Positions 5,123 to 8,755 of a stretch of DNA of 64,000 nucleotides are shown one piece after another. The notes below the pieces were generated by a model. That model saw only the letters and a list, made by a program, of their open reading frames with translations, ran no database searches and was not told the origin of the DNA. Origin of the DNA: Candidatus Kapaibacterium sp. (GTDB taxonomy: Bacteria > Bacteroidota > Ignavibacteria > Kapaibacteriales > NICIL-2); contig JANWWF010000001.1 of NCBI GenBank assembly GCA_025055755.1, positions 152,915 through 216,914 of the forward strand. The letters are read 5' to 3'. Both the position numbers and the translations under genes were made by a program. Each line of letters starts with the position of its first letter. Positions within the stretch are counted from its first letter, which is position 1.

Positions 5123-6436
5123 TTACAAGTGTTCAAAAAAATGCTTAATTCGTTCCAAGACATTACGATAGCCAAGTGTTGAACGCTGACTTCGTTCAAT
5201 ATGGCGATAGGTCATGCCTGTTCTATAAGCTGCATTAGTACGGAGTTCTTGTGCAAAGAGCACTAAACCAACCGCAGTCGCATACATAGGACTTTGCACC
5301 TCTGGTACAAAGCCTCCGTGAAGACCTATGGTTGGAATACCCACCTTTACAGGCATACCAAAGATGCGTTCTGCAAGCTCTGCTGCACCCCGCAGCTGTG
5401 CACAGCCTCCGGTCAGAACTACCCCCGCTGCAAGATTTCGTGCATATCCACTTCGACGGATTTCTGCGAAGGCAAATTCAAAAATTTCTTCCATCCGAGG
5501 CTGGATGATCTGACAGAGCATGCTCTTGCTTACTTCGATCGGTTTGCGACCATTGATACCCGGAATCATGAATACCTCATCATGCAGAATGCTCTCTTGT
5601 AATGCATGACCATAGGCTATCTTGATTTGCTCTGCCTGTGCGTGGACAATCCCCAGACCTTTTTTGATGTCGTCGGTGACCTTATTACCTGCTATTGCAA
5701 ACATTGCTGTGTGCCGTATTACACCTTCGTCGAAAATCGCAATGTCAGTAGTGCCACCTCCAATATCTACTAAGGCAACCCCTACTTCCCGCTCCGCACT
5801 ATCGAGGACCGCCATGCTGCTGGCAACAGGCTGAAGAACGATCTCAGTCACTGAAAGACCAGCACGTTCGACACAGCGATGGATATTTTCTAATGCAGTA
5901 CGTGCTGCTGTTACAACGTGAATATTTGCTTCCAGTCGCACGCCCGTCATCCCCAAGGGATCAACGATTCCATCTTGTCCATCGAGAATGTAATCCTGTG
6001 GAAAAAGGTGAAGAATCACTCGATCGGCTGGTATTGCAATCCTCCGGGCATCATCCATCAGGCGCTGCAGGTCACTTGAGCGAACCTCTCGCTCTGAACC
6101 AGCAATCGCAACTGCGCTTCGACTCTGGAACGATTGAACATGGTCGCCAGCAATACCGACGACCACATCAGTAATTTCTACACCTGATGTCGTCTCTGCT
6201 TGTGCAATAGCCTCCTCGATGGCAGCAACAGTTTTCTCAATATTCACAACAATACCCCGCGCAAGACCTGTATTTTCCGCAACCCCTATTCCAAGAACTG
6301 TCAATGCGGCGTTTTTTTCATCCGGTGCCGCAACAATAGCACAAACTTTCGTAGTCCCAATATCCAGCCCAACGATAACGTTGCTGTGGCGCGGCGAGCG
6401 TGAAGCTCGTGCAATTCGCTGCTGTGGATTATTCAT
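5123..6436 (-). CDS. ftsA: Cell division protein FtsA
   Basis: A 437-aa actin-like ATPase that tethers FtsZ to the membrane. Signature blocks are NVIVGLDIGTTKVCAIV (phosphate 1), the 1C domain after about residue 85, VALVDIGGGTTDIAIF (phosphate 2) and GVVLTGGCAQLRGA (adenosine). The C-terminus ends in ERIKHFFEHL, an amphipathic helix expected to bind membrane. The frame is open further upstream, but the ATG at 6436 overlaps the ftsQ stop as ATGA and is preceded by a G-rich Shine-Dalgarno-like GGGGGGAGT, so this start is chosen. It lies between ftsQ and ftsZ in the classical order. Confidence 0.95.
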   Translation of the reverse strand: MNNPQQRIARASRSPRHSNVIVGLDIGTTKVCAIVAAPDEKNAALTVLGIGVAENTGLARGIVVNIEKTVAAIEEAIAQAETTSGVEITDVVVGIAGDHVQSFQSRSAVAIAGSEREVRSSDLQRLMDDARRIAIPADRVILHLFPQDYILDGQDGIVDPLGMTGVRLEANIHVVTAARTALENIHRCVERAGLSVTEIVLQPVASSMAVLDSAEREVGVALVDIGGGTTDIAIFDEGVIRHTAMFAIAGNKVTDDIKKGLGIVHAQAEQIKIAYGHALQESILHDEVFMIPGINGRKPIEVSKSMLCQIIQPRMEEIFEFAFAEIRRSGYARNLAAGVVLTGGCAQLRGAAELAERIFGMPVKVGIPTIGLHGGFVPEVQSPMYATAVGLVLFAQELRTNAAYRTGMTYRHIERSQRSTLGYRNVLERIKHFFEHL

Positions 6437-7191
6437 ACTCCACCCCCCACAGATGTGGACTGTTGACTGGCTAAGCTCACAATAATCCGATTCTGCCATC
6501 GAAGGTCAACCACGGCCACGTTTTGTCTATACCATGGCGATTCAATGAACCATGCAAGGCGATCTATTTTGCTGGATAAGTTTGTGTTACTTCCCAGAAG
6601 AACAGCGGTTGATGTGGGAGAAAGAATAATCGAGAGTGTTCCATCCCTGCTGCACTGAAGCTCTGCGCACCATGTATTCAGACGGCTATCTGCGCTAAAC
6701 GTCCTGAGAATCGGCAAAGCTTGTGCAAGTTGACGCAGATGATGGATCGAAATAACAGGAACATTAGCCTGCCGATAATACGGGCGATACTCGCCGATGA
6801 GACTATCGCTAAGCACCCACCTTACGCTACCGTCGGCAGCACGGACAAGCGCACACGGATGATGCTCCGTCACTGTAATCTTGAGCACCGTGCCAATCCT
6901 ACGCGCCATAGCTTGGCGAATAAAGGGGAAACGTTCTACCTCTTGCTCGATTTGGCGCAGCGATGGAAGTGTTTTTTTTGAGAGAAGGAGATTCACCGCA
7001 CACGTAACGGAATCTCGATACTCCTGGGCAATATGCTCCCAGCCCTCAATACTGACAGATGTCACCTCCTGTCCGCGATGCCAGAGATGAGCAGCCACCA
7101 CCACTGCTATGCATAGAATAGCAGCAGTCAAGAATTCACTTACGCTGAATGAGTGTTGTTCCAGACGTTGTTTCATTCCATGCATACGCAT
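6433..7191 (-). CDS. ftsQ: Cell division protein FtsQ/DivIB
   Basis: A 252-aa bitopic membrane protein: a short cytoplasmic N-terminus, one transmembrane helix (FLTAAILCIAVVVAAHLW), then a periplasmic POTRA-like domain (VTSVSIEGWEHI onward) and a FtsQ-type beta domain. FtsQ links FtsB/FtsL and the septal peptidoglycan synthase to the divisome. Sequence similarity in this family is weak, and identification rests on topology plus position directly before ftsA and ftsZ. The frame opens at 7230, but the ATG at 7191 shares its A with the TGA of an upstream small ORF (TGATG). ATGs at 7185 and 7176 are also possible. Confidence 0.85.
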   Translation of the reverse strand: MRMHGMKQRLEQHSFSVSEFLTAAILCIAVVVAAHLWHRGQEVTSVSIEGWEHIAQEYRDSVTCAVNLLLSKKTLPSLRQIEQEVERFPFIRQAMARRIGTVLKITVTEHHPCALVRAADGSVRWVLSDSLIGEYRPYYRQANVPVISIHHLRQLAQALPILRTFSADSRLNTWCAELQCSRDGTLSIILSPTSTAVLLGSNTNLSSKIDRLAWFIESPWYRQNVAVVDLRWQNRIIVSLASQQSTSVGGGV

Positions 7192-7349
7192 CAAGTGGGC
7201 GATAATGACGCCAGTGCTAAAAACAGGCACAGCACACCAATAACTGTGCTGAGAATTGGCGCATCAGTTGATTTTGCCCACAACTGTGAAGGAACTGCTC
7301 GGATTGAGTCATCTGCAATAGTGCTGCATCTATTGCAGACGCGCAGCAA
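7191..7349 (-). CDS. Possible small membrane protein upstream of ftsQ
   Basis: An open frame of 52 codons from a TTG at 7349, ending at a TGA that overlaps the ftsQ ATG by one base. The product has a polar N-terminus (LLRVCNRCSTIADDSIRAVP) and one hydrophobic segment (APILSTVIGVLCLFLALASL), so a single-pass membrane protein is plausible. Against it: there is no ATG, no Shine-Dalgarno sequence and no recognised family. It fills the only sizeable gap (142 bp) in the operon between the HisA-like gene and ftsQ. Treat as tentative. Confidence 0.3.
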   Translation of the reverse strand: MLRVCNRCSTIADDSIRAVPSQLWAKSTDAPILSTVIGVLCLFLALASLSPT

Positions 7350-7373: not shown

Positions 7374-8144
7374 TCAAGAGTTTTCTGAGGGAAGCGGAAA
7401 ATTTTTTTGTAATAGGCTTTCTACTTTTCGCCAAATGTGCTGGCAGGGGAATCGGTTCTCCGCAATAGCCCGCCCAACAATAACCGAGTCCACACCTAAT
7501 GGTTGCATTTGATTACAGCGCCATAGTTCCTCTGGCGTGTCAATCCCCCCTGCTACGGTAATATTCATGCATGTCGCTTGAGCAAAAGACTTGATAACAT
7601 CGAAATCTGGACCCTGATATGTACCCTCCCATGCTATGTCGCTATAGATTATCCGTCGAATTCCACATGCTTTTGCCATCGCAGCAAAGGCAACATCATC
7701 AATCTGTTGTCCTGCTATATGCAGCACACGATTACGGGCGCGAATGCCTGCAACAATGCGAGACGAGGAGTACTTGGCAACTAAATGCTTGACTTGGTCA
7801 GGGACAGTAACGATCATCTCAGTAAGGACAAGTCGAAAAGCACCCTTATCAATCCAATACAGGCATTCATCAATATCTGGAAATGCCGAAAGAAGCTCGA
7901 TAGGAATGTCCACAGCATCAATGATATGCTCAATTGCTTGGCGCGTTGCGACGGTTGGCCTGCAGTCAAGAGCATCTAAATCCACGATATGAAGAGTACG
8001 AGCATTCTCTTGGCGCAGTAAGCGTGCTACTTCATGAGGATGTGCCACCAAGTAATCGTAATAGGCTTCCATGCCAGGCTCGCCAAGAATACGCCGCCGG
8101 CATTGTCCATTGCGAAGCTCAATTGCGGGAATGACCAGTATCAT
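7374..8144 (-). CDS. HisA/HisF-related TIM-barrel protein with altered catalytic residues
   Basis: A 256-aa protein with clear overall similarity to HisA, the ProFAR isomerase of histidine synthesis: MILVIPAIELRNGQC, LHIVDLDALD, IIYSDIAWEGTYQGPD, ITVAGGIDTPEEL and GVDSVIVGRAIAENRF. The C-terminal phosphate-binding loops are therefore kept. Both HisA catalytic aspartates are changed, however: IPAID is IPAIE (E9), and GIDAR is GIRAR (R135). The first phosphate motif, GGGIRS, is replaced by LLSAFP (84-89). It is unlikely to catalyse the HisA reaction. No other his genes are near; it sits 5 bp after ruvA and upstream of ftsQ. Function unknown. Confidence 0.8.
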   Translation of the reverse strand: MILVIPAIELRNGQCRRRILGEPGMEAYYDYLVAHPHEVARLLRQENARTLHIVDLDALDCRPTVATRQAIEHIIDAVDIPIELLSAFPDIDECLYWIDKGAFRLVLTEMIVTVPDQVKHLVAKYSSSRIVAGIRARNRVLHIAGQQIDDVAFAAMAKACGIRRIIYSDIAWEGTYQGPDFDVIKSFAQATCMNITVAGGIDTPEELWRCNQMQPLGVDSVIVGRAIAENRFPCQHIWRKVESLLQKNFPLPSENS

Positions 8145-8149
8145 TGGCT

Positions 8150-8755
8150 TTAGCTTATCTGGTGAAGAATGCGCAGCGCATGTTTTATGAGCGTCTCAAC
8201 TGACGGACTCTGCCCTTGCTGCCGCATTGTCTCGAACGCTGTCCGAAGTGCCTTCTCTGCCTGTGCACGATTATAACCAAGAACGACCATTGCCTGAAGT
8301 GCCTCACTGAGGAGTAAGGAAAATTCTCCCACTCCCTCTCTCTCAATGCTGACTGAAGCAATTTTTTCGCGCAATTCCAATACCAACCGCTCTGCGGTCT
8401 TTTTCCCAACACCGGGGATTCGCTGCAGCACGACAAGATTATTTGCAAGAACTGCATGCTGAAGCTCAGCAACACTCATCGCAGAAAGAATGCTTAGTGC
8501 AATCCGTGTACCGACGCCGGGAATAGCGATCAGGAGAAGAAACATCTCTCGCTCACTGGGAGTAGCGAAGCCGACTAATTCAATGCCATCGTCGCGGACA
8601 ATCAGATGAGTATGGACAATTGCATGCTCTCCAACGGAAGGTAACTGCCCCGAGGTCGTCAGCGAAACACTCATTCGAAATCCGATGCCCCCACAATCTA
8701 CCACAATGTGGGAAGGTGATTTTTCGATAAGCGTACCAGAAAGTCGAGCAATCAT
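8150..8755 (-). CDS. ruvA: Holliday junction DNA helicase subunit RuvA
   Basis: A 201-aa protein with the RuvA architecture: an N-terminal OB-fold (MIARLSGTLIEKSPSHIVVDCGGIGF), two helix-hairpin-helix motifs (LIAIPGVGTRIALSIL and LQRIPGVGKKTAERLVLEL), and a C-terminal three-helix domain (LLSEALQAMVVLGYNRAQAEKAL) that contacts RuvB. RuvA tetramers bind four-way junctions and load the RuvB motor for branch migration. Length matches the family. The ATG overlaps the stop of the upstream phosphatase gene by 4 bp. ruvB and ruvC are not in the window. Confidence 0.96.
   Translation of the reverse strand: MIARLSGTLIEKSPSHIVVDCGGIGFRMSVSLTTSGQLPSVGEHAIVHTHLIVRDDGIELVGFATPSEREMFLLLIAIPGVGTRIALSILSAMSVAELQHAVLANNLVVLQRIPGVGKKTAERLVLELREKIASVSIEREGVGEFSLLLSEALQAMVVLGYNRAQAEKALRTAFETMRQQGQSPSVETLIKHALRILHQIS

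What the first reader, a model, noticed from the sequence alone, without database searches (positions are those of the whole stretch)
7374..8144. HisA paralog that has lost both catalytic aspartates and the first phosphate loop
The protein keeps the HisA scaffold and second phosphate site, but has Glu for Asp at residue 9, Arg for Asp at 135, and LLSAFP in place of GGGIRS. No histidine genes are nearby; it sits between ruvA and ftsQ. This looks like a recruited barrel with a new ligand or role, not a decayed gene, because the frame is intact.
Basis: partly seen in the sequence, partly recalled or inferred. Interest (0 to 1): 0.6.

Follow-up and report, generated by a model that had tools for sequence, protein, structure and literature searches.

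The report
HisA-derived protein outliving histidine synthesis
A protein descended from the histidine-biosynthesis enzyme HisA has been kept, under strong selection and usually right next to the DNA-repair gene ruvA, by an order of bacteria that has almost entirely lost the histidine pathway; its active site has been destroyed or remodelled while the opposite end of the protein stayed frozen, which points to a new, probably binding or scaffolding, job.

Summary
The ORF is a HisA-family barrel (AlphaFold pLDDT 95) with E9, R135 and LLSAFP where HisA has Asp, Asp and GGGIRS. The 99%-complete genome has no HisD, HisB, TrpC, TrpF or other HisA. Relatives occur in 71 of 99 genomes of the order (Kapabacteria): 68 lack HisD, 3 also carry a canonical HisA. 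The gene lies directly 3' of ruvA in 54 of 68 genomes, whatever follows; dN/dS is 0.03-0.17. It descends from the C-terminally extended HisA of Chlorobi/Rhodothermota his operons. In the wider class all 22 sampled genomes lacking HisD still keep a copy. In Kapabacteria the catalytic end eroded, while R44, E46, R164, S220, N230, F232, C234, Q235, W238, R239 and E242 are identical in all 63 non-pathway sequences. Outside family f3 the pocket is re-specified (D135 to R, D173 to E, second phosphate site intact); in f3 most of it is gone. Best reading: a HisA-derived non-isomerase retained for a binding or scaffold role. The partner is unknown; RuvA is a candidate, not shown.

The parts
7374..8144 (-). 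HisA-derived non-isomerase, 256 aa
8118..8120 (-). codon 9: E in place of the first catalytic Asp
7740..7742 (-). codon 135: R in place of the second catalytic Asp; R in 20 of 23 readable sequences outside family f3
7878..7895 (-). codons 84-89 LLSAFP in place of the first phosphate loop
7623..7631 (-). codons 172-174 WEG (R/K-D-G in HisA); E173 in 23 of 24 and W172 in 21 of 24 outside f3
7539..7553 (-). codons 198-202 AGGID, second phosphate site; G199 G200 in 24 of 24 outside f3
7998..8015 (-). codons 44-49 RQENAR, helix-1/strand-2 turn; R44 and E46 in 63 of 63, N47 in 62 of 63 non-pathway sequences
7419..7457 (-). codons 230-242 N.FPCQ.IWR..E, helix-8 hallmark
8150..8755 (-). ruvA, conserved upstream neighbour, 5 bp away
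6433..7230 (-). ORF in the ftsQ position (no Pfam hit); neighbour in family f1 only

Best explanation
It is a HisA-derived protein that no longer works in histidine synthesis. The lineage's own C-terminally extended HisA acquired a second, non-catalytic function carried by the N-terminal ('bottom') end of the barrel and helix 8. After the histidine pathway was lost, or its HisA replaced by a transferred one, that second function alone kept the gene. In Kapabacteria the gene came to lie behind ruvA, the ProFAR chemistry was destroyed (first phosphate loop lost, second Asp replaced), and in most families the pocket was re-specified to what is probably a one-phosphate site. Proposed mechanism: a docking or scaffold subunit, co-produced with RuvA, whose residual pocket possibly senses a small phosphorylated ligand. 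Shown: loss of HisA residues, relationship to extended HisA, independence from his and trp genes, purifying selection, ruvA linkage, end-wise conservation. Inferred: that the conserved end binds a partner, and that the pocket binds a ligand. Partner identity is unknown.
For: Own genome has no HisD, HisB, TrpF, TrpC; its other PF00977 hits are Dus and IMPDH. 71 of 99 order genomes carry it, 68 without HisD. All 22 HisD-lacking class genomes keep the family, and several HisD+ genomes hold it beside a canonical his-cluster HisA. One clade, 100/100. Relative to his-operon members, conservation falls at the top end (0.69 to 0.45) more than at the bottom (0.69 to 0.60), 0 of 20,000 permutations as extreme. 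Eleven positions invariant in 63 sequences; R135, E173 and W172 nearly fixed outside f3. dN/dS 0.03-0.17. ruvA directly upstream in 54 of 68. TIGR00007 score falls from 283-295 (his-operon type) through 186-224 (class, no pathway) and 125-132 to 54 (family f3).
Against: No partner or ligand identified. Invariant residues could be internal packing or salt bridges rather than an interface (no coordinates available). The gene is absent from some genomes (e.g. G009, where ruvA is followed directly by nuoG), so it is dispensable in places. Family f9 has it away from ruvA.
Confidence: 0.55

Rival explanations
1. A re-tooled enzyme or ligand-binding barrel: the remodelled pocket (R135, W172-E173, one intact phosphate site) acts on or senses a new small phosphorylated molecule, and that is the main function.
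For: Outside f3, R135 (20/23), E173 (23/24), W172 (21/24), G174, G178, G199, G200 (24/24) and R225 (23/24) are nearly fixed in a new combination; D55, D57 and Y29 stay in nearly all.
Against: The 17 f3 relatives have lost most of this pocket, second phosphate site included, while keeping the gene, mostly the ruvA linkage, and the helix-8 motif; g32 relatives are shortened (204 aa in the two read).
Confidence: 0.25
2. A dedicated RuvA/RuvAB accessory protein acting in Holliday-junction processing.
For: Directly behind ruvA in 54/68 genomes although downstream genes differ; distances correlate with RuvA after correcting for NuoG/H/I (partial r 0.50).
Against: Class-level relatives and family f9 are not next to ruvA; some genomes have ruvA and no copy; the tree-distance test shows background too (0.35 with NuoI).
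Confidence: 0.12
3. A relic decaying after loss of the histidine pathway.
For: Graded loss of HisA residues; shortened copies in g32; absence in G009.
Against: dN/dS 0.03-0.17, invariant motif across many families and nearly fixed new residues, conserved gene pair.
Confidence: 0.04
4. Still a working HisA or PriA-type isomerase.
For: HisA fold; second phosphate site kept.
Against: Both catalytic Asp and the first phosphate loop lost; no HisD, HisB, TrpC, TrpF in the genome.
Confidence: 0.02

Closest known systems
HisA (ProFAR isomerase, TIGR00007) of Chlorobi and Rhodothermota with the C-terminal extension (PMC8305728)
   Same: Fold; C-terminal FPCQ..W helix, R44, N47, R164, D219-S220
   Different: Those have D9, D135 and GGGIR in all 14 examined, several sit beside hisB, hisH or hisF, and the two scored exceed the HisA cut-off; the window protein has none of these
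PriA (bifunctional HisA/TrpF, Actinobacteria)
   Same: Best fold and sequence matches in the PDB (4w9t, 4u28, 2vep)
   Different: PriA needs both Asp residues and serves His and Trp pathways (established knowledge); neither the residues nor TrpC/HisD are present here
Class-level relatives in HisD-lacking Ignavibacteria-type genomes (e.g. L183-L186, L189, L190)
   Same: Helix-8 motif, E46, R239, E242; kept without the his pathway
   Different: Still have the GGG loop and mostly D135; not next to ruvA
Pseudoenzymes in general (e.g. HisZ, derived from histidyl-tRNA synthetase; from general knowledge and PMC8305728)
   Same: Enzyme-derived protein that lost part of its original function and was kept
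   Different: HisZ has a known partner (HisG); here the partner is unknown

Membership tests
HisA (TIGR00007 equivalog) | score above the curated cut-off | tested here: not met
   125 bits against 228.95
HisA (TIGR00007 equivalog) | two catalytic aspartates | tested here: not met
   E9, R135
HisA (TIGR00007 equivalog) | two phosphate loops | tested here: not met
   second kept, first replaced by LLSAFP
HisA (TIGR00007 equivalog) | rest of the histidine pathway in the genome | tested here: not met
   HisD and HisB absent; other PF00977 hits are Dus and IMPDH, so no HisF
HisA/HisF superfamily (Pfam PF00977 His_biosynth) | family score and barrel fold | tested here: met
   123 bits, cut-off 23.6; AlphaFold pLDDT 95.3, Foldseek 4.3e-17 to HisAP
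PriA / TrpF | Trp pathway present and catalytic Asp kept | tested here: not met
   no TrpC or TrpF in the genome; E9, R135
Pseudoenzyme | enzyme homologue lacking catalytic residues, under purifying selection | tested here: met
Pseudoenzyme | no catalytic activity of any kind | not testable with these tools
   needs biochemistry
RuvA accessory protein | physical interaction with RuvA | not testable with these tools
   only linkage and tree-distance correlation

The most novel reading that the evidence does not exclude
The C-terminally extended HisA of the Chlorobi-Ignavibacteria-Kapabacteria lineage is an ancestral moonlighting protein whose second, non-histidine function sits at the opposite end of the barrel and is important enough to have kept the gene after repeated pathway loss or HisA replacement; in Kapabacteria it became a dedicated partner of the RuvA recombination machinery.
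Probability: 0.15. Interest if true: 0.8.

Novelty: new variant of a known kind. Interest (0 to 1): 0.52.

Why it matters
Automatic annotation is likely to call these proteins HisA, giving histidine-auxotrophic bacteria a false histidine gene. More broadly it is a natural experiment in which many related lineages separate an enzyme's catalytic end from a second conserved surface, so a hidden second function of a textbook metabolic enzyme becomes directly testable. The literature found noticed that I. album and M. roseus carry a probably transferred HisA (PMC8305728), but the passages read do not mention that genomes of this kind keep the older one.

Tried and rejected
Working HisA or PriA: rejected on residues and missing pathways. 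Decay: rejected on dN/dS and invariant motif. ftsQ-ftsA-ftsZ linkage as a clue to division: only in family f1. nuoG-H-I linkage: only in f2, f3, f6. Viral carriers: none. Literature searches for HisA pseudoenzymes and for HisA with RuvA found nothing relevant. Limits: the top/bottom assignment rests on DSSP elements and barrel topology, with positions assigned by me; neighbouring positions and related sequences are not independent, so the permutation p is optimistic, as is the Mantel p.

Full report
OBSERVATION. The ORF at 7374-8144 (-) is intact and encodes 256 aa. Residues 9, 135 and 84-89 are E, R and LLSAFP. Pfam assigns His_biosynth at 1.2e-35, but the HisA equivalog TIGR00007 scores 125 against a cut-off of 229. 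AlphaFold with an alignment of 73 sequences gives a confident barrel (pLDDT 95.3, pTM 0.91) whose nearest solved folds are HisA/PriA (4w9t, E 4e-17).

GENOME. The assembly is 2.33 Mb and 99.2% complete. It has no HisD, HisB, TrpF or TrpC, and its only other PF00977 matches are a dihydrouridine synthase and IMP dehydrogenase. The closest named relatives are Candidatus Kapabacteria and Chlorobiota metagenome bins. A published Kapabacteria lineage was inferred to be probably unable to make histidine and tryptophan (PMC6338057).

DISTRIBUTION. In 99 genomes of the order, 71 carry a relative of the orphan type, three of them (genus g32) matching only partly; separate hits of about 24% identity are canonical HisA. 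HisD occurs in only 13 genomes: ten of family f7, in which no orphan was found, and G016, G036, G083, which have the orphan and a canonical HisA. So 68 genomes have the orphan and no HisD. TrpC is absent from all 31 order genomes tested. In the wider class, 22 of 64 genomes lack HisD and all 22 still match the family at E <= 1e-44. Genomes such as G112, G117, G127, G131, G172, G213, G235, G331 and G343 hold a canonical HisA next to HisF plus the separate extended protein. Elsewhere in the phylum the extended protein is the his-operon HisA itself, beside HisB, HisH or HisF, with both Asp and GGGIR intact. This agrees with a published C-terminal HisA extension in Chlorobi and Rhodothermota and a proposed horizontal replacement in I. 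album and M. roseus (PMC8305728).

DESCENT. In a 97-sequence maximum-likelihood tree the order's proteins form one clade (100/100, together with L145, a public record whose place marks it as a member), and canonical HisA another (100/99). Helix-1 and helix-8 residues absent from canonical HisA (R44, N47, R164, S220, F232, C234, Q235, W238) tie the orphan to the extended HisA. TIGR00007 scores run 283-295 for two his-operon members, 186-224 for three class members without the pathway, 125-132 for the window type and 54 for a family f3 protein.

SELECTION AND SITES. Close pairs give dN/dS 0.03-0.17 wherever dS was finite. Compared with his-operon members, mean conservation falls from 0.69 to 0.45 at the catalytic ('top') end and only from 0.69 to 0.60 at the other ('bottom') end; none of 20,000 permutations was as extreme (positions and sequences are not independent, so this p is optimistic). 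R44, E46, R164, S220, N230, F232, C234, Q235, W238, R239 and E242 are identical in all 41 order and 22 class sequences, N47 in 62 of 63. In the 24 order sequences outside f3, the second Asp has become R (20 of 23 readable), D173 has become E (23 of 24), W172 has appeared (21 of 24), and G199-G200 of the second phosphate site is complete (24 of 24) while the first loop is lost in all. In the 17 f3 sequences most of the pocket, second phosphate site included, is gone. In f3 genus g32 the protein is shortened to 204 aa in the two copies read, and the one scanned has no Pfam match.

NEIGHBOURHOOD. Of 68 order genomes with both genes located, 54 have the orphan directly downstream of ruvA on the same strand; twelve of the fourteen exceptions are family f9. 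What follows differs: the ftsQ-position ORF, ftsA and ftsZ in f1; nuoG-H-I in f2, f3 and f6. In G009 the gene is missing and ruvA is followed directly by nuoG. Orphan and RuvA distances remain correlated after correction for NuoG/H/I (partial r 0.50; 0.35 for NuoI under a similar correction, so partly background).

INTERPRETATION. The gene is not a HisA by function, not a PriA, and not a relic. The feature kept by every member is a cluster at the bottom of the barrel and helix 8, which argues for a binding or scaffold role; the pocket has a second layer of selection only outside f3. RuvA is the best genetic lead for a partner, but the class members examined are not next to ruvA, so the original partner may be something else.

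Noticed in passing
L113-L121 and L126-L148: In two separate Ignavibacteria-type groups the HisA-derived gene lies near genes that look by eye like histidine degradation (a urocanate-hydratase-like protein in one, an imidazolonepropionase-like protein in the other) and behind a ~760-aa propeller-like secreted protein.
   Followed up: no
L071:4707-5321, L072:5517-6131: Genus g32 copies are shortened to 204 aa, losing a middle stretch of the barrel but keeping N- and C-terminal motifs and the ruvA-nuoG position; no Pfam hit remains for L071.
   Followed up: partly
L262 (G009): Clean absence of the gene between ruvA and nuoG, which lie 100 bp apart.
   Followed up: partly
L099, L109, L122, L142, L150: Public records named Bradyrhizobiaceae, Melioribacter roseus, Desulfobulbaceae, Chloroherpeton thalassium and Ectothiorhodospiraceae carry the Kapabacteria/Ignavibacteria-type gene, most with the same neighbours; probably mislabelled or contaminated bins.
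   Followed up: no
6433-7230: The ORF in the ftsQ position gives no Pfam match; the name rests on position only.
   Followed up: no
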